From assembly GCF_024228675.1 (NCBI RefSeq), contig NZ_CP100463.1, positions 186,001 to 250,000 on the forward strand: 64,000 nt of DNA, in the 5' to 3' direction. The DNA comes from Salinigranum marinum. GTDB lineage: Archaea > Halobacteriota > Halobacteria > Halobacteriales > Haloferacaceae. Below the pieces are notes generated by a model. It did not search any database and was not told the origin of the DNA. It saw nothing but the letters and a program-made list of their open reading frames with translations. The position numbers and the translations under genes are program-made. Shown here one piece after another: positions 8,650-25,648 of the stretch (position 1 is its first letter; each line of letters begins with the position of its first letter).

Positions 8650-8935
8650 GTGTGTTAGCGCTCGGAAGTTCTCAATTCGACGAATCAGGGTCGTGAGCTC
8701 GGAATCGGCGGTTGCTCCCGGTCTGTTTTCACACTCGGATTTGAGCCATGTGACGGTGTCAACGTCGCCGACGAGGCCTGTCGAGACATCTCGCGCGGTA
8801 TACACCCACTGACTTTCGCCGTAGGTGGAAGGGTGTACACTGCGTGTGAAGGGGTGTACATCGGTCACGACAGCTGTCTGGGTGTGGGCCGCATCTCCTG
8901 CACGAGTTCCTCACCCGTTACTCGTTCCCAGTTCC
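8650..8935 (+). pseudogene. Decayed gene fragment, copy A of an unknown family
   Basis: One frame reads continuously as a protein-like sequence including GVNVADEACRDISRGIHP, FAVGGRVYTACEGVYIGHD. The same peptide pattern appears in copy B on the minus strand near 38.3 kb (GLNIADDASQGISRG, then MVYTGCGRVYIGGD). Shared pattern: G(V/L)N(V/I)AD(E/D)A, ISRG, F(A/S), VYTxC, VYIGxD. The VYTxC..VYIGxD part looks like beta-propeller blades of PQQ/WD type, but the family is not recognised. No start codon or stop bounds the fragment, and it runs into the convergent nuclease-like gene. Confidence 0.45.
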
Positions 8936-10095
8936 GCCTCAATTCGGGTAATTCGCGAGGTGATCTCGTCTTCAGTCTCCCCCAACATCGATCGAATCTT
9001 CTCTGCTGACTGTTCCAACTGCGTGCACTGCGTCTTGATTTTGCCGAACGACTCGATCGACTGCTTCAGTCCATCCAATTCGGCCTTCATCGCTTCAGGA
9101 TCCACGTCGGAACCCATCTCGACCGCGGACAGGAGGGTCCGCGTTCGTGCCCAATGATACGCGAACTTCAGGAATCGCGGTTCGATTTCGTCATCCGGCG
9201 CTTCGCTCAGTGCGACGACCACGTAGTCCTGGTCGATCTCCGAGAACCAGCCAACTTTGGTTCGCGGGAGATACGCCAATGAACTCGCGACGCATATTCC
9301 GTAGTCGGCATCGCGGTTCTCGATCGCTTCTTCCATTTCCGACTGGATCGTTCCACTGAACTCGCCGTTCTTCGCCTCGACGACGATCCGTTGGCCCGTC
9401 CCCTCCAGCGTGAGGACGAAATCACCCTTCTTCGAGGTCGAGACGTCACCTGTCTCCTCGCTCTTATTCTTCAATCGGTTCGGCGTCTGGTGGACGACGT
9501 CCTCCAGCAGCGTCTCCAGCTGTTCTTCGAAATCAAATCCTTTCAGCCGAGTCTTCTCGCGTACCTCCTGTTGCGCGGCTTCCTGAGTGACTTTCTCTTG
9601 AACCTCTCTGATCTCTTCTTTGAGTTGATGCGTCGGTGTCCCAGGCTCGTTCGGATTAAGGGCCTGCTGGATCTTTTCGCCACCCTCGCCCAGCTGTTCG
9701 TCCAGACGGGTCGCGAACTCGCCATCGGTTCCGAAGACGTCCTCAAGTTGTCTGTCGAGTTGGCCGTCCTCCCCAAGGTGGTCATCGAGCAACCGACTGA
9801 CCTCTCCCTCGTCGCCGAATCGGTTATCGAGTTCGTCACGAAGTTCGTCCAGTTCCTCATTGAACGTCCGCTCCAGTTCGCCGAACCGCCGTTCGACAAC
9901 CTCGATCTCCTTCGTTGTCTCGACGATGTCCAACGTGGACGCCCCGATGCGGAGTGCTTGCGTGAGCGCTTCACCACGCTCGGCCGGCTCGATGTCCGAG
10001 AGATAGTCCGTCAGTTGCTCGTCCTGTATTGTGAGATTCTCAACGACGACGCGGCTCTCAGCGGTATCAAGCGTGACGTTTTCCACCGTCGACAT
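8911..10095 (-). CDS. Coiled-coil protein with PD-(D/E)XK-like nuclease domain
   Basis: 394 residues in three parts. Residues 1-70 are mixed. Residues about 70-190 are strongly helical and include four near-repeats of 14 residues (LDNRFGDEGEVSRL, LDDHLGEDGQLDRQ, LEDVFGTDGEFATR, LDEQLGEGGEKIQQ). Residues about 200-330 look like a restriction-endonuclease-like fold: GFDFEEQLETLLEDV helix, KKGDFVLTLEG with the Asp, IVVEAKNGEF with Glu-x-Lys, then a helix and a strand with DYGICVASS. The tail is another coiled coil. The layout recalls DUF2130 or RmuC-like nucleases. It is transcribed after an unknown gene 71 bp upstream. A role in DNA processing or defence is inference. Confidence 0.62.
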   Translation of the reverse strand: MSTVENVTLDTAESRVVVENLTIQDEQLTDYLSDIEPAERGEALTQALRIGASTLDIVETTKEIEVVERRFGELERTFNEELDELRDELDNRFGDEGEVSRLLDDHLGEDGQLDRQLEDVFGTDGEFATRLDEQLGEGGEKIQQALNPNEPGTPTHQLKEEIREVQEKVTQEAAQQEVREKTRLKGFDFEEQLETLLEDVVHQTPNRLKNKSEETGDVSTSKKGDFVLTLEGTGQRIVVEAKNGEFSGTIQSEMEEAIENRDADYGICVASSLAYLPRTKVGWFSEIDQDYVVVALSEAPDDEIEPRFLKFAYHWARTRTLLSAVEMGSDVDPEAMKAELDGLKQSIESFGKIKTQCTQLEQSAEKIRSMLGETEDEITSRITRIEAELGTSNG

Positions 10096-10166
10096 ACCAC
10101 CTCCAGTGACTGTCTGTAGCTACATCAATCTGTGTCGCAAACGCTCACAAACGAGAACGGTCCCTG

Positions 10167-10868
10167 CTATTTGTTGATCTTCAGAAGGCTCTTCGCGCGC
10201 TTGTGCACCTCGTCCATCCGAACGAGGTCGGGATCGTATTCGACATCGAGTTCTTCGAGGAGCATCTCGGTATCCGTCTGGTTGAACTGCCTGTGGAACC
10301 GGTCGTCCTCGTAAGCGATTCGGGCCAACCGTTTCTCCTCCTCGGGGTCAGTCCTGGCCTCTTTCTCGATTCGCTCTTGCATTCGTTCCAACTGACGCAG
10401 GCGCATCGACTCGACCCTGTTCTCGAGATCGAACCGCTCGGACTCTTCCAAATAGTCGGCGTACTGATTGAGGAGTTCGGTCGCGACCTCTTTTTTTCGC
10501 TGTACCTCCTCTTCGCTCTCGTCCCTTCCAAATCCCCCGAGCATCCCGACGCTCCCACGGGATTCTGACTGCTCTTGTTGTGGTCCTAGTCGCTCGTCAG
10601 ACTCTACATACCGGGTGTGTGCCCGCTCCCCGTGGATGTAGCACACTCCACCGAAATCGACGCCTCCCTCCGCAGTGCGATCCTCGAACACGTAGAACTC
10701 GTCGATGCCACGATCGACTGCCTGGTCAATGAACTCGACCAGCGAGACGTCCGTGAACACAAACCCCTCGAAGGGTTGATTCTCGACATGGAACGCGGTG
10801 AGGTCGGCCTGCACGTTTAGTTGGCTCTTCGCGTCTCCGAGTTGGCGTTCGATCTCTTCTTGATTCAT
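10167..10868 (-). CDS. Unknown protein paired with the nuclease-like gene
   Basis: 233 residues from the ATG at 10868 (a longer form from 10898 is possible). The N-terminal half alternates strands and helices (DLTAFHVENQPFEGFVFTDVSLVEFIDQAV, DEFYVFEDRT, VDFGGVCYIHG) and the C-terminal half is a long charged helix region (KKEVATELLNQYADYLEE, RLRQLERMQERIEKEAR) ending in LLEELDVEYDPDLV. No family is recognised. It lies 71 bp upstream of the coiled-coil PD-(D/E)XK-like gene on the same strand and 151 bp from the divergent DUF429 gene, so all three may be one functional unit. Confidence 0.6.
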   Translation of the reverse strand: MNQEEIERQLGDAKSQLNVQADLTAFHVENQPFEGFVFTDVSLVEFIDQAVDRGIDEFYVFEDRTAEGGVDFGGVCYIHGERAHTRYVESDERLGPQQEQSESRGSVGMLGGFGRDESEEEVQRKKEVATELLNQYADYLEESERFDLENRVESMRLRQLERMQERIEKEARTDPEEEKRLARIAYEDDRFHRQFNQTDTEMLLEELDVEYDPDLVRMDEVHKRAKSLLKINK

Positions 10869-11019
10869 ATACTCGACGTCGGATGCCGTCCAATTCAATC
10901 CCAGCCTAGATGCGCAGCTTGACTTCTTCTCCTCCCCTCGGATGGCCGGCTCACTGGGTTTTCACCACGGCTGCGACCCCGGTACAATATATGTCGCAGA
11001 AATAATCCATCGAGCAGAC

Positions 11020-11820
11020 ATGACGTACATTGGTGTCGACTGGGGCTCGAACGGGTGGATTTGCGCGGTTCTCGACCACGACGAACGCGGATCGCGGGAA
11101 ACGTACAGCTGGCGATTCGTTCGACGGCCCTCGATTCTGAGCGTCTGGATGGAGTTCGGTGCTGGCCACGAGGACGACGTCGGTCGAATTCTCGTCGATA
11201 TTCCCATCGGCTTGCCCACGGACGACGCTCGTGCTGCAGATCTTGAGGCACGTACGTTCCTCCCTCCGTCGCGTCAGTCGTCAGTGTTTCCGGCACCGTG
11301 TGAACAGGCGGTATACGAAGATGAGTACGATGAGGCGGCAGAGACCCACGAGGATGTTCTCGGCCGTGGGCTCTCGCCGTACTCCTGGAGCCTCTCGCCT
11401 CGAATTCGCGAGGTCGACGAGTTTCTCGGCCAGTACACCGACGCACGAGGACCGATGCTCGAATCCCATCCGGAGGTCTGTTTCCACGCGCTCGACGTGG
11501 ATGACGACCTCGAGGACTCGAAGCAGGACGACTCGGGACTAGAGCAGCGTCACGAACTTCTCACGGACTGTGAGCGAACAGCCGGCCTCTCGAGTAATGC
11601 GACCGCAGCCTATACCGATCTCGTAAAGCGGATCGAAAGGTTATCGCCGTTCGCTCGCCGGATCGGCCTGGGGAACCGGGATGACGTCCTCGATGCGATG
11701 GCGATGGCGCTCACTGCCCGGCTCGCTGACGGCGACTTCGATTGTCTCCCCGACAAAGACGCGCCCAACGGGGTGAACGAGATCGTCTATTTCGATGGGG
11801 AACGCCTGGATCCGATGTGA
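11020..11820 (+). CDS. DUF429 family protein (RNase H-like fold)
   Basis: 266 residues beginning MTYIGVDWGSNGW, the first strand and Asp of an RNase H-like fold. Later conserved acids lie in ILVDIPIGLP and in NRDDVLDAMAMALTAR near the end, with SHPEVCFHAL between, all hallmarks of DUF429 proteins, which are predicted nucleases or nucleotide-handling enzymes without a settled function. The ATG at 11020 places the first strand at the N-terminus; the longer reading from 10942 has no similarity. An AT-rich ACAATATATG box about 35 bp upstream is a likely promoter. Divergent from the unknown/nuclease-like pair. Confidence 0.8.
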   Translation: MTYIGVDWGSNGWICAVLDHDERGSRETYSWRFVRRPSILSVWMEFGAGHEDDVGRILVDIPIGLPTDDARAADLEARTFLPPSRQSSVFPAPCEQAVYEDEYDEAAETHEDVLGRGLSPYSWSLSPRIREVDEFLGQYTDARGPMLESHPEVCFHALDVDDDLEDSKQDDSGLEQRHELLTDCERTAGLSSNATAAYTDLVKRIERLSPFARRIGLGNRDDVLDAMAMALTARLADGDFDCLPDKDAPNGVNEIVYFDGERLDPM

Positions 11821-11983
11821 GTTCCCTCAGAAGCTCTCGGTCGTGACCAATCGGTGTCCGTTGCGTCGGCCAGCCTGACTGCGTCACTCACCGTCTCTTT
11901 GAACGCCCCCGGGCGCTCGACTCGGGGGGCTCGCTGCGCGCTTCGGCTCGCTCACGGGGTTCGCTCGCCTCCAGTGCTTACAC

Positions 11984-12094
11984 CGAAGCGACGCAGTCGC
12001 TTCGAGCCTCCGCTCACTCTGTTCGCGGAGACGTCGCCCGCCGTCACCAGAACGCTGCGCGTTCTGGTTGGCTCACGAGAGCTTGCTCTCGTGA
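11984..12094. repeat. Cluster of three perfect short hairpins
   Basis: CGAAGCGAC-GCA-GTCGCTTCG at 11984-12004 (9-bp arms), CCAGAACGC-TGC-GCGTTCTGG at 12047-12067 (9-bp arms), and a third at 12073-12094 with 10-bp arms TCACGAGAGC/GCTCTCGTGA and a 2-base loop. All three are exact. No coding explanation is seen. Confidence 0.8.
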
Positions 12095-12606
12095 ACGTCG
12101 TCGAGCGCCCGGCCCCGTTCAGTCCCACCCCTGCTCGTGTGAGCTTCCATCGTTCGCCCGGTTGTCCTGGTGTGCCCTCCCGAGTTGGATGCCGAGTTGT
12201 CGCTCTCGTGTTTGACCGGTGTGACGACCACGCCTCGCCGTACTCGCCTCCCCGAGGCGGGGACACACGTGGAACTCCCTGCGGTCGTTCCACGCCTTGC
12301 TCACGGCTGGCGCCGTTCGCTTCGAGGGACTCACTGCGTTCGTCCCTCGCCTCGCTCGCACCTTCCCGGTGCGCCAGCAGCCAAGTGTGGTTGCGGTTGC
12401 GCCCCTCGCGGGCTTTCGCGTTCCAGCCCTCGGTGCCGCTGGCGCGCGGGAACGCACCTCCCTCACGGTCGGCGCGTCCCCGTGCTCACGACAGTCGGCC
12501 TGGACACGGACCCGCAGTCCGGGCCGGACCGCGAACCACCTTGGCGCTGGCCGCTCAGGTCCCCACCCGCGGCGCGCGCGGCTGGTTCTTTCACTCGTGA
12601 GGAGGC

Positions 12607-12651
12607 GTCTCGCTCGCGCCCACAGGGGGCGCTCGAAGGCGCGAGCGAGAC
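12607..12651. repeat. Large perfect inverted repeat upstream of TFB gene
   Basis: Arms GTCTCGCTCGCGCC (12607-12620) and GGCGCGAGCGAGAC (12638-12651) pair over 14 bp without mismatch around a 17-base loop, 100 bp before the TFB ATG. It could be a terminator for readthrough, a structured leader or a protein site. Confidence 0.8.
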
Positions 12652-12750
12652 GCGGTCGGTGTCGAGAATCATCGGACGAAGTTGGAACTCATGTAGTGGT
12701 GAGTGTCGGAGAAGACGCGGTAGTGGACGCGCCTTCGGGTAAGTAACCCA

Positions 12751-13800
12751 ATGAGTAGTAGCTACGCTATCGGACAAGAAGCTTCGGACGGACAGGCGCG
12801 AAAACAGAACGCGGAACGCCCTACGGGTCGGTGTGACGAGTGCGGTGGGCTACTGGTGCGGGAGCAGATCGAGACGGTGTGCGCGGCGTGTGGACTTGTC
12901 GTTGACGAGGACGCCCTTTCGCGGGGGATGAGCCCGAGCGTGCACAAGCAGGGTGAAGTCGGTAACGGGCCGGTCGAGTGGAGTCTGGAGACGACGACTG
13001 CATTACGAGTGGACTCAGGGCTGCACACGACGTTCTTCCTCGGGTCGGATGGGTACGGGAACTCGTTGACAAAGGCGCAGAAAGACAAGTTCGGGCGGCT
13101 CCGGATGCGGCACAAGCGGTTTCAGATGGAGTCGAAGCGGTCGATTCGGCTCAACGAGGGGCTCCGTGACGTCCAGATGATTGTGGGCAACCTCGGGCTT
13201 CCGGGGTTCGTCGCGACAGACGCGGCGGCGCTGCTGAAGCAGGCGTCTGAATCGCGGCTTCCAGGCGGGCGGATGGCGTGGGAGGCGCTCGCGGCTGGAG
13301 CGGTCTACGTGGCGACGAGCCAGACCGGTCTGAGGCGAACGACGGAGGAAGTGGCGGTGCACGCGAAAACCTCCCACGAGCGGGTATGCGCAGCGGCGCG
13401 GAAGCTGCGGTGTGAGCTCGGACTAGTTGGGGAGGTGCCACCGACACAGGCATGGGCGGTCGACGCGGTTGTGGAGACGCTCGGGGAAAGTCAGGACGTC
13501 GAACTGAAAGCGTGTCTCGAACTCAGGCGGGTCGGTGAGTTCCTTCTTGAGTTAGCTGATGAGGCGTGCATCGGGCCGGGGACGCCGCGAGTGGTCGTCG
13601 GGGCGGCGGCGGTGTACGCGGCGGACCGGCTGACCGAGGGGAAGACCGTGACCCAGGCGGCAGTCGCGGAGGCCGCAAGTGCGATCGTGCCGACGTCGAC
13701 CGGCGTGGTGGCGGGCTACTCGCGGGAGGTGTACGATGCCCACACGGCGCGGTACGGGACCCGTGACGTCGACGCGGTGGTGACGGGTCGGCTGGCCTGA
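12751..13800 (+). CDS. tfb: Transcription initiation factor B (TFB), divergent
   Basis: 349 residues. The zinc ribbon near the N-terminus is intact: Cys28, Cys31, Cys44 and Cys47 (CDEC then CAAC). Two cyclin-like repeats follow, the first around LNEGLRDVQMIVGNLGLPG and TTEEVAVHAKTSHERVCAAARKL, the second around GTPRVVVGAAAVYAADRL and TVTQAAVAEAASAIVPT, which together contact TBP and BRE DNA. The linker between ribbon and core (HKQGEVGNGPVEWSLETTTAL) is unlike the usual haloarchaeal B-reader with its RTGxP motif, so this is a divergent paralogue, as often found on haloarchaeal plasmids. It may direct RNA polymerase to a subset of promoters. Confidence 0.88.
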   Translation: MSSSYAIGQEASDGQARKQNAERPTGRCDECGGLLVREQIETVCAACGLVVDEDALSRGMSPSVHKQGEVGNGPVEWSLETTTALRVDSGLHTTFFLGSDGYGNSLTKAQKDKFGRLRMRHKRFQMESKRSIRLNEGLRDVQMIVGNLGLPGFVATDAAALLKQASESRLPGGRMAWEALAAGAVYVATSQTGLRRTTEEVAVHAKTSHERVCAAARKLRCELGLVGEVPPTQAWAVDAVVETLGESQDVELKACLELRRVGEFLLELADEACIGPGTPRVVVGAAAVYAADRLTEGKTVTQAAVAEAASAIVPTSTGVVAGYSREVYDAHTARYGTRDVDAVVTGRLA

Positions 13801-13954
13801 GCAGGCCGGCTGCTCGTCTTTTTTGTGTCCCCCACCCACGGACCCGCCCCCCTCCCCACCCACCGCTCCGTGCTCGCGCCGCCGGAAGACTCGCGATACT
13901 CGTCTTCCGTGCTCCCGCTCGCTCCGCTCGCGGGAACTTCGGCGCTGCGCGCGC

Positions 13955-14129
13955 AGCCACGACCTAATGATTCTCTCATCTTCTGTGGGGTAGTCAATGT
14001 AGGTCCGGTCGAGCGCCTCGATGTGGTCGTACAGGAGGTCGAACGCCTGCTTCGACGTGGACTCGGCGAACGCGGGGATAAGATCGTTCTGCATCGCGAA
14101 CAGTACATTGTCCGTGACGATCCGAACAT
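13955..14129 (-). pseudogene. Fragment of unknown gene
   Basis: The minus strand reads NVRIVTDNVLFAMQNDL, IPAFAESTSKQAFDLLYDH, IEALDRTYIDYPTEDERII in one frame, protein-like and acidic, from just after the stop of the neighbouring gene at 14142. After about 13960 the frame turns into arginine-rich GC-biased sequence, so the 3' part is lost. An ATG exists at 14094. The family is not recognised. Bases 13801-13955 between this and the TFB gene hold nothing recognisable. Confidence 0.35.
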
Positions 14130-14141
14130 TCCACGAGGGGA

Positions 14142-15137
14142 CTACCCTGACTCACTACTGGATGGCGTGTGGAACGTTCTGCCGGATTCGAAGCTGGTGA
14201 GTTCCTCGATACGCCGTTCCAACTCCTCGATTTCTTGCTGGAGTTCGTCAGTATCCTCGCCGTCGACAGCGGCCAGCCGGCCTTTTAGCCCCTGCAGCCG
14301 CGACTCCTTGACCTCCTCGTCCACCTCGGCCTTGCGAACGTACTCGCTCTCTTCGATATCGTACACGTCGGATTCGGACAGGTCGGTCACGTCGAGAGCG
14401 TCGTCGACCTTATTTCGGTCCACGCTCAGGACACGCTCGCGCTCGATGCCCGCCGCTTCGAGCGTCTCGAGTACCTCCTCGTCGCCTTTGAGTGAACGGT
14501 TCCGCCGGATCGTGCGCTGGACCGAGCCGTACTGACCATAGATGGGCTGATCGTGATGCAGCCGGTCGAGCAGGACACTGCGTACCGCTTGTCGGAGATC
14601 GTCGGCGTTGCGCTGGACATCCGAAAGAAGCGTGTAGAGGTTGACCAACGCAGGTGTCCCCCTCCCCGCGAGATCCCTGGGATCGTAACGCTCCAGCGCA
14701 TCGATGAGGAGGAGAGCATCAGCGTAGACGTCGATATCGGGCTCTTCACGCGTCTCTTCATCAGATTCACTCTCGAGACGGATGTCCACAAGCTGTGTGT
14801 CAGTCGGCGCATCAGCTTCGGTAAGTGCGCCCTCCCGGTCGTCCACCTCGAAACGCGGGTGAAGACTCAACACGGTCGCGTATGGTTCGGCGTCCGCCGG
14901 GAGCCGGTCGAGATCGAACTCGCTGTGTGTATCTCTGACGCGCTCGTACAGCGTCTCGAACTGCTCGCGCTGGAGTGGGATCATTCCCGAGTCGTCTCGG
15001 TACTCGATGAGCACGCGCTGTTCCTGCACGTCGGTAATACGGAAGGGTCGCCGACTGAGCGGCGTGACAAGTGTCGCGTCAGACGGTAGGTCTTCCACCC
15101 GGTCGAGGAGGCTGTGCCAACTCGAGGTGAACGGCAT
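14142..15137 (-). CDS. Acidic protein of unknown function
   Basis: 331 residues, strongly acidic, from ATG at 15137. The N-terminal 60 residues (LVTPLSRRPFRITDVQEQRVLIEY) suggest a small beta domain, residues about 100-200 are helical (DVYADALLLIDALERYDPRD, ALVNLYTLLSDVQRNADDLRQAV), and the last 60 residues form a coiled coil (LQQEIEELERRIEELTSF). Codon use and composition are typical of a real haloarchaeal gene. No catalytic motif is visible and no family is recognised. It is followed by a gene fragment and precedes, on the same strand, a truncated SWIM-associated protein. Confidence 0.65.
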   Translation of the reverse strand: MPFTSSWHSLLDRVEDLPSDATLVTPLSRRPFRITDVQEQRVLIEYRDDSGMIPLQREQFETLYERVRDTHSEFDLDRLPADAEPYATVLSLHPRFEVDDREGALTEADAPTDTQLVDIRLESESDEETREEPDIDVYADALLLIDALERYDPRDLAGRGTPALVNLYTLLSDVQRNADDLRQAVRSVLLDRLHHDQPIYGQYGSVQRTIRRNRSLKGDEEVLETLEAAGIERERVLSVDRNKVDDALDVTDLSESDVYDIEESEYVRKAEVDEEVKESRLQGLKGRLAAVDGEDTDELQQEIEELERRIEELTSFESGRTFHTPSSSESG

Positions 15138-23590: not shown

Positions 23591-25648
23591 TTACGCATCA
23601 TCAGTCGGGACGAACTCAGACAACTCGGTGTCTCGAGTTCCGCTTAGCCTTTGTCTGATGTCCGTCCGGTCCCATCCGAGGGGCGAGAGAACACTCTCGA
23701 CAGCTCGAACGAGCTGCGTTTCATAGTACGACGCGTCGTATGTCTCAATACATTCGTGCCGGAGAGCGACTCGATCCCGAGACGACTTCCCGTCATCGAC
23801 AACCACGTACTCGATATCCTGTCCCGGATGGACCGTGAGACCTCGGTCACGGGCTCGCTCGAGCGCCGCGACGTCCTGCGTGTACTGTGTGTATCCCTCG
23901 ATCGGTTTCGAGACACGGTTCCGTTCGACGAGCCGATCCACCGTCACCGCTCCAGCGCGAAGCTTCGAAACAGCCCGCCTCAGACACCCAATAACGGCCT
24001 CTGGCGACCGGGTCTCGTCGAACCGCTTCAGGCACTCCCGCTGGACGTCCGCGACAAACGCCGGTGTCGACCGTTGTCGCCACTCTATACCCCGTACCTT
24101 GAACTCGTCTTCTTCAGCGACTTTGCCGAAGTACTTCGTCAATGCACCAGCGTCACTCTCTCGCTGCGGCACGAACGCCACCCACTCGTATCGTGCTTCG
24201 TACTCGAGCCGAATCTCGACCGTCTCCGTGATTTCTTTCGCGAGGTCCTTGAGATTAACTCGCCTATCATCCTCGACATCGGGATCGGGCGTCACCCAGA
24301 TCGAATCGACAATGCCGTGAACGACACGCCACCCACCAGCCTCCAACCGTTGTTTCGCGGTCAACAGAATATCCCGAGCGAACGCATTGATCGCCTCGTG
24401 ACACTCGATCCGACCGAACTTCGCGTTACTGAACCCTTGATACCCGAAACAGGCGACGAGAATCCATTTCAACGCGCTCGACCGCCCGTTGAGTGCTTCG
24501 AGACGTTCTTGATCGGGCGTCTCCCGCCGCTGTTCGCGACGGATTTCGGCTTTGATCTCGTCGCGAGCATCGATGATCGGTTGGAGCACGTCGACGAGGT
24601 ACCCACGTTCGTCACAGATGGCGTACCCCAAGCCAGGCACGTCTTCACGACAGCGGTGACACTCACACCGTATCACGTCCGGTGACACGTTTCGCGTGCA
24701 GATGATGTTCGGATACAGACTCGAAAAGTCGAGTTCGTGGACGTCTTCGTGGAGACCAACCTCGGGCGCGAAAATGAAGCCACCTCGATCGGCGCCGTGG
24801 AGCGTCCGCATCGGTTTGTAGAACTCGTGCCGCCAGGAATTCCACGGCACCAACACATCTCTGTCGTGAGCTTCGCAGATCTGGATGGCCGTTAGTACGT
24901 TCCCAATTGACGCCCAGGCGAGCTCTTGGACCGGCTTTTTCGACCGCGACACGAGATCGAGGACGCCATCGAGGTTCGTCTCCCCGTAGAAGAACGTGTT
25001 CGACTCGTCGATGATCGCCCGACCGGGCACGTTGTACCGCGCCGGTGAGTGACCGACGCGATCATAACTCGAGTACGTTGACTGACTCGCGAGCTGCTGG
25101 TGGTCCACGTCTGGCCACCGACTCAACGAGAAGTCGTCGACGCCGACGGCCGTCGCCATCTCGGACAGCGTCGGGACGATCTCGCTCGTTGAGCAGACCA
25201 GGACGTCCGGATCGTGTGCGTCGAGCGCTGCCTGCACGGCGGTCAAGAGCTCCGAGGGCGAGCCAATGACGGTGTCGCCGGCGACGGACAGTTCCTCGTA
25301 GAGGTCGTTGCTCGTTTCGGTCACCGGGACGCTAAGCCGGAGCGTCGCCAGATCGATCGCCGGCGTCGGATCGACGCCAGTCTCCAGACAGTACCGGAAC
25401 TCCCGCGAAAAGTCGACGTTGAAGCAGGCGAGATCCCCGACTGGATAGTCCGACAGCTGGCGCGCCTGCTGGGCGAGTGGGGTGACGCGGTCGATGTGGC
25501 GGATGTCGACGGCCAGGACTGGTTCCTCGTCTCGTCGAAAACCGGGCCGTCGCGCAACCGTCTCGCTTGCGACGACATCTGGGTGTTGGTCGTACGCCGA
25601 CTGGAGTGTCGTGAGGTCGAGGTCGGCGTCGGGGTCGCGAGGGGCCAC
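23591..25648 (-). pseudogene. Family B DNA polymerase, plasmid type, N-terminus truncated
   Basis: 685 residues from an internal GTG. Polymerase motif A is DFSSLYPNI (residues 307-315); motif B is degenerate, KWILVACFGYQGFSNAKFG (from 394), where FGYQ replaces the usual N..YG; motif C is HGIVDSIWV (444-452), in which the first aspartate of YxDTDS is replaced, leaving one Asp. The frame is open upstream as VVDYTSRFYVAPRD to a TAG near 25690, so about 35 native residues are missing where the TnpB-type end abuts. The three exonuclease motifs are not evident. It resembles the family B polymerases of haloarchaeal plasmids and proviruses. The remaining frame is fully open and might still be translated. 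Confidence 0.7.

What the first reader, a model, noticed from the sequence alone, without database searches (positions are those of the whole stretch)
8911..11820. Coiled-coil PD-(D/E)XK protein, unknown partner and divergent DUF429 nuclease-like gene as a candidate system
Seen: a 394-residue protein with four 14-residue near-repeats and a GDF..EAK nuclease-like core, preceded by an unknown 233-residue protein, and facing a DUF429 protein with an RNase H-like start across 151 bp. Known: PD-(D/E)XK and RNase H-like folds are frequent in DNA repair and defence. Inference: the three may form one nucleic-acid-processing or defence unit in an accessory island; I know of no described system with this composition.
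Basis: partly seen in the sequence, partly recalled or inferred. Interest (0 to 1): 0.6.

Follow-up and report, generated by a model that had tools for sequence, protein, structure and literature searches.

The report
Uncharacterised coiled-coil nuclease of defence islands
One of the three genes belongs to an unnamed family of nuclease-type proteins that turns up, with changing neighbours, among the antiviral and DNA-processing genes of salt-loving archaea, methanogens, cyanobacterial plasmids and one phage; the other two genes look like chance neighbours, so there is no three-gene system.

Summary
The genes are there as described. The 394-aa protein (8911-10095, -) has PD-(D/E)XK motifs, a predicted nuclease core that Foldseek matches mainly to such nucleases (McrC first), and an E190/D225/E240/K242 site invariant in 13 haloarchaeal relatives. 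The 14-residue repeats are real: the period is exactly 14 and unit number varies by whole units.

The three-gene system is not supported. None of 17 other nuclease-bearing haloarchaeal genomes searched has the 233-aa protein; its three relatives elsewhere have neither nuclease nor DUF429 beside them. DUF429 is an ordinary PF04250 protein and lies beside no relative of the nuclease.

The nuclease itself is the finding: an unnamed family, patchy (about 5% of haloarchaeal genomes), often plasmid-borne, sometimes decayed, with distant full-length relatives in methanogens, Nostoc plasmids and one tailed-phage contig. Its neighbours vary but are often defence genes or DNA motors: AddB-like+UvrD, AAA/VWA/metallo-beta-lactamase, type III restriction-modification, Mrr, prokaryotic Argonaute, Mokosh-like helicase. 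A UvrD helicase lies within 10 kb in 9 of 18 genomes (0.27 expected). Most likely it is a metal-dependent nuclease accessory to the motor or defence genes beside it. Fold and site are well supported; activity, defence role and mechanism are inferred.

The parts
8911..10095 (-). 394-aa coiled-coil PD-(D/E)XK family protein, intact ORF
   Evidence: ORF; full-length relatives at 38-46% identity; AF2 model and Foldseek
9205..9543 (-). nuclease core, residues 185-297; predicted order alpha-beta-beta-beta-alpha-beta with further strands
   Evidence: AF2 elements H189-201, E207-210, E226-230, E235-242, H250-260, E265-270, E284-287, E291-295; best Foldseek hits McrC, DdmD, HindIII, Bax1, MspJI, Hjc
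9370..9528 (-). predicted catalytic residues E190 (9526-9528), D225 (9421-9423), E240 (9376-9378), K242 (9370-9372)
   Evidence: invariant in 13 haloarchaeal relatives and in 14 with methanogens
9652..9819 (-). four 14-residue near-repeats (residues 93-148), predicted as short helices joined by GxxG turns
   Evidence: motif spacing and copy-number variation; helices 98-107, 112-121, 126-135, 137-145
10167..10868 (-). 233-aa protein of unknown fold, upstream and co-directional with a 71-bp gap; partnership not conserved
   Evidence: AF2 pTM 0.29, no Foldseek hit at E<=0.001
11020..11820 (+). DUF429 (PF04250) RNase H-like protein; divergent neighbour, not part of a conserved unit
   Evidence: 159.5 bits; not adjacent to relatives of the nuclease

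Best explanation
The 394-aa protein belongs to a so far unnamed family of PD-(D/E)XK proteins with this order of parts: small beta-alpha N-terminal domain, long coiled coil, 14-residue GxxG repeats, second coiled coil, nuclease core, C-terminal coiled coil. It is most likely a Mg-dependent DNA nuclease carried as an accessory gene in defence and DNA-processing islands, often on plasmids. Proposed working: coiled coils and repeats assemble the protein into dimers or higher oligomers and dock it to whichever DNA motor or sensor is encoded nearby; when that motor engages foreign or damaged DNA, the E190/D225/E240/K242 site cuts it. Shown here by computation: the motifs, their conservation, the predicted fold, the patchy spread, the changing defence and motor neighbours. 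Inferred: activity, oligomerisation, docking, defence role. In the window the only candidate helper is the 233-aa protein; DUF429 is probably unrelated.
For: Invariant E...GD...EAK, kept as E...GD...ExK in methanogens and in a phage copy. AF2 core with mean pLDDT mostly 74-88 over residues 191-270; Foldseek hits are mainly restriction enzymes, McrC, DdmD, Bax1 and Hjc. Pfam Mrr_cat is hit by 11 of 13 members, best E 4e-5. UvrD within 10 kb in 9 of 18 genomes against 0.27 expected. Close and often co-directional neighbours: AddB-like+UvrD; VWA/metallo-beta-lactamase; type III Mod/Res and prokaryotic Argonaute; Mrr; Mokosh MkoA-like helicase. Patchy presence and split or fragmentary copies, absent from the three other species of its genus.
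Against: No biochemistry. The window copy has no helicase or recognised defence gene next to it. Nostoc relatives have EAR where others have ExK, so the lysine is not universal. Association with defence genes does not show that the gene itself defends. Outside the core the AF2 model is weak (overall pTM 0.40).
Confidence: 0.6

Rival explanations
1. A DNA repair or recombination nuclease rather than a defence gene: it processes ends or branched DNA together with AddAB-like or other helicases.
For: AddB-like PD-(D/E)XK + UvrD pairs immediately upstream in L021, L029 and L040, with exonuclease VII genes nearby in L040; the phage copy lies in a replication block between SNF2-like and DnaB-like helicase genes; Foldseek also finds Hjc and Bax1.
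Against: A housekeeping repair gene would not be in about 5% of genomes, plasmid-borne and decaying; neighbours also include restriction-modification and Argonaute genes.
Confidence: 0.22
2. The 233-aa protein and the nuclease form a two-gene module special to this lineage, the 233-aa protein being its regulator or target adaptor.
For: Same strand, 233-aa gene first, 71-bp gap.
Against: The nuclease has its own ribosome-binding site; 233-aa relatives occur without a nuclease relative; none of the 17 other nuclease-bearing genomes searched has one.
Confidence: 0.12
3. The three genes are one system.
For: They are adjacent in the window, and DNA from about 8.0 to 11.9 kb has no match in the three sister species, so they may have been gained together.
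Against: The trio was found in no other genome.
Confidence: 0.03
4. The nuclease fold is catalytically dead and serves as a DNA-binding scaffold.
For: Lysine replaced by arginine in a Nostoc relative; a weak Pfam hit to an inactive-REase family.
Against: E, D, E and K all invariant in archaeal members.
Confidence: 0.08

Closest known systems
Mrr_cat (PF04471) type IV restriction endonucleases
   Same: Nearest Pfam nuclease family for most members (11 of 13, best E 4e-5); some relatives are annotated 'restriction endonuclease'
   Different: The window protein itself does not match it at E<=1; a direct comparison with a neighbouring Mrr protein gave nothing; the coiled-coil and 14-residue-repeat arms are extra
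McrC nuclease subunit of McrBC
   Same: Best Foldseek hit, over the nuclease part only (E 7e-4)
   Different: No McrB-like GTPase among the neighbour genes scanned; low TM-scores (0.22-0.23); different N-terminal architecture
CoCoNuTs, coiled-coil nuclease tandems (PMC11090510)
   Same: Extensive coiled coils combined with a PD-(D/E)XK nuclease in defence islands
   Different: CoCoNuTs are built on McrB/McrC homologues and are nearly absent in archaea (PMC11090510)
RmuC and DUF2130 proteins (coiled coil + PD-(D/E)XK; architecture from own knowledge)
   Same: Similar overall architecture
   Different: No RmuC match among the families listed; DUF2130 only at E 0.011 in 3 of 13 members
DUF429 (PF04250, PMC3985635)
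   Same: The third gene is a clear member
   Different: Not linked to this nuclease family

Membership tests
PD-(D/E)XK nuclease superfamily | core of order alpha-beta-beta-beta-alpha-beta | tested here: met
   AF2 model; Foldseek
PD-(D/E)XK nuclease superfamily | conserved D and (D/E)xK on neighbouring strands | tested here: met
   D225, E240, K242 invariant
PD-(D/E)XK nuclease superfamily | metal-dependent cleavage of nucleic acid | not testable with these tools
   needs purified protein
Mrr_cat PF04471 | profile score over Pfam's gathering cut-off | tested here: not met
   no hit at E<=1 for the window protein; hits in 11 of 13 relatives, bit scores not shown
DUF2130 PF09903 | profile score over cut-off | tested here: not met
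   no hit for the window protein; best E 0.011 in 3 relatives
McrBC / CoCoNuT | McrB-like GTPase encoded beside the nuclease | tested here: inconclusive
   none recognised among the neighbour proteins scanned with Pfam and PADLOC; not every neighbour was scanned
Known anti-phage system in PADLOC-DB 2.0.0 | profile match of the nuclease or its window neighbours to a system component | tested here: not met
   only a weak coiled-coil match, E 0.006; nothing for the 233-aa protein or DUF429 and no convincing hit in nearby genes
DUF429 PF04250 | profile score over gathering cut-off | tested here: met
   159.5 bits against 23
Proposed three-gene system | co-occurrence of the three genes in other genomes | tested here: not met

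The most novel reading that the evidence does not exclude
An unnamed nuclease family, spread through archaea, cyanobacterial plasmids and a phage, that acts as an interchangeable effector plugged into several different motor-based defence systems (AddAB-like, AAA/VWA/metallo-beta-lactamase, type III restriction-modification, Argonaute), its coiled coils and 14-residue repeats being the docking device.
Probability: 0.25. Interest if true: 0.75.

Novelty: new variant of a known kind. Interest (0 to 1): 0.42.

Why it matters
The family has no Pfam, NCBIfam or PADLOC model that recognises it, so defence surveys built on such libraries would not count it, yet it recurs next to restriction-modification, Argonaute, UvrD and Mokosh-like genes in archaea, where defence repertoires are less well charted (PMC12988326). 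A single nuclease used by many motor systems would be a testable case of a shared effector.

Tried and rejected
Single-sequence pattern scans of genome and viral contigs found nothing; the profile scan of genomes found 11 loci and a profile widened with methanogens found one phage contig. No relative in the phage record collection. A consensus bait of my own for a possible wide bacterial family reached only archaeal plasmids already known. PDB sequence search gave only coiled-coil chance hits. Structure of the 233-aa protein: low confidence, no Foldseek hit at E<=0.001. hhalign against a neighbouring Mrr protein gave nothing. Rejected: the three-gene unit; DUF429 as a partner; RmuC, DUF2130 and CoCoNuT membership. 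Paper searches found no description of this family.

Full report
Observation. The 394-aa gene (8911-10095, -) follows the 233-aa gene (10167-10868, -) after 71 bp and has its own GGAGGTG ribosome-binding site; DUF429 starts 151 bp away on the other strand if the ATG at 11020 is used. The 14-residue repeats are real by period (12 identities at lag 14, at most 7 at other lags, 0.4% of shuffles) and because three relatives have one unit fewer while most keep spacings of exactly 14.

What the 394-aa protein is. No family in Pfam, NCBIfam or PADLOC claims it. Full-length relatives at 38-46% identity occur in haloarchaea (18 of 392 genomes of the order have a match, some of them fragments; 10 of 170 in its family, 6 of 125 and 11 of 146 in two other families; named examples). 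The alignment keeps E190, G224-D225, E240-A-K242, E253, N260-R261 and more without exception. The AF2 model has an alpha-beta-beta-beta-alpha-beta core at residues 189-270, mean pLDDT mostly 74-88, flanked by long helices; the rest of the model is weak (overall pTM 0.40). Foldseek returns mainly PD-(D/E)XK nucleases: McrC, DdmD, HindIII, Bax1, MspJI, Hjc. Mrr_cat is the nearest Pfam nuclease for most relatives. Together these make a PD-(D/E)XK nuclease fold with an intact site the supported reading; activity is not shown.

Reach of the family. Distant full-length relatives occur in methanogens, including a Methanomethylovorans hollandica plasmid, in Nostoc plasmids (hhalign probability 99.1), and in a 58-kb tailed-phage contig between SNF2-like and DnaB-like helicase genes (gene names there are my reading of the sequences). 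The Nostoc copy has EAR in place of ExK.

Is it a three-gene system? No. The 233-aa protein has relatives in only 3 of 391 other genomes of the order and in none of 17 other haloarchaeal genomes that carry the nuclease; its relatives are beside neither a nuclease relative nor a DUF429 gene. DUF429 genes lie beside no relative of the nuclease; in two genomes one or two sit about 7 to 16 kb off. In the three sister species no DNA match to window 8.0-11.9 kb was found; matches begin at 11.9 kb, in a multicopy TFB-bearing stretch. DUF429 was described in 2014 as RNase H-like, probably an active nuclease and unlikely to be mobile (PMC3985635).

What are its real neighbours? They change from locus to locus but keep a theme: (a) AddB-like PD-(D/E)XK + UvrD directly upstream (L021, L029, L040), the same pair divergent (L032) or about 4 kb away (L053); (b) AAA/DUF4143 (PDC-S01-like in PADLOC) - VWA - metallo-beta-lactamase - nuclease, with UvrD about 9 kb upstream (Haloferax L022, L023, L043), a variant with metallo-beta-lactamase, nuclease, then prokaryotic Argonaute (L109), and Halobaculum arrangements with a MkoA-like helicase (L031, L042); (c) type III Mod and Res directly upstream (L039); (d) Mrr downstream (L025); (e) a QatC/QueC-like gene upstream (L026, L027); (f) a DUF87 ATPase upstream (L078). 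UvrD lies within 10 kb in 9 of 18 assembled genomes where 0.27 are expected (P about 1e-12; about 4e-9 after merging the two closest pairs), and in all three plasmid records tested. The P values treat genes as placed at random and ignore both clustering into islands and shared descent, so they overstate the case.

How it most likely works. Inference: coiled coils and repeats mediate oligomerisation and docking to a neighbouring motor or sensor; the nuclease site cuts DNA that the motor engages. The rival of a repair role is kept at 0.22 because of the AddAB-like context and the phage copy. In the window no motor is adjacent and no UvrD was found on its contig, so this copy either works alone, works with distant motors, or is a recent arrival.

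Known or new. It is a member of the PD-(D/E)XK superfamily by fold and motif, not a member of Mrr_cat or DUF2130 by profile, and nothing points to a McrBC/CoCoNuT system. I found no paper that describes it in the library available. I rate it a new variant of a known kind.

Noticed in passing
window 11898-13965: DNA around the TFB-like gene (12751-13800) is multicopy: several copies at 73-84% identity in the own genome and in sister species, as if a TFB-bearing cassette were mobile or expanding.
   Followed up: no
L109:4423-14930, L022, L023, L043, L031, L042: Recurring operon of AAA/DUF4143 (PDC-S01-like), VWA, metallo-beta-lactamase and often a large UvrD; VWA and metallo-beta-lactamase proteins have no PADLOC match where scanned (L022, L109). 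Looks like an undescribed haloarchaeal defence system.
   Followed up: partly
L076:7530-8855: A tailed-phage contig encodes a full-length member of the nuclease family inside its replication block.
   Followed up: partly
window 14142-15137 and L034:7442-8425: 331-aa protein of unknown function with a 70% identical relative about 6 kb from a decayed nuclease copy in another genome.
   Followed up: no
window 23591-25648: 685-aa family B DNA polymerase with a PADLOC homing-endonuclease match in its C-terminal part, possibly an intein-related hit.
   Followed up: no
L026:9009-12589, L027:8497-12077: QueC/QatC-like gene with two small genes upstream of the nuclease; not a complete Qat system as far as seen.
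   Followed up: no
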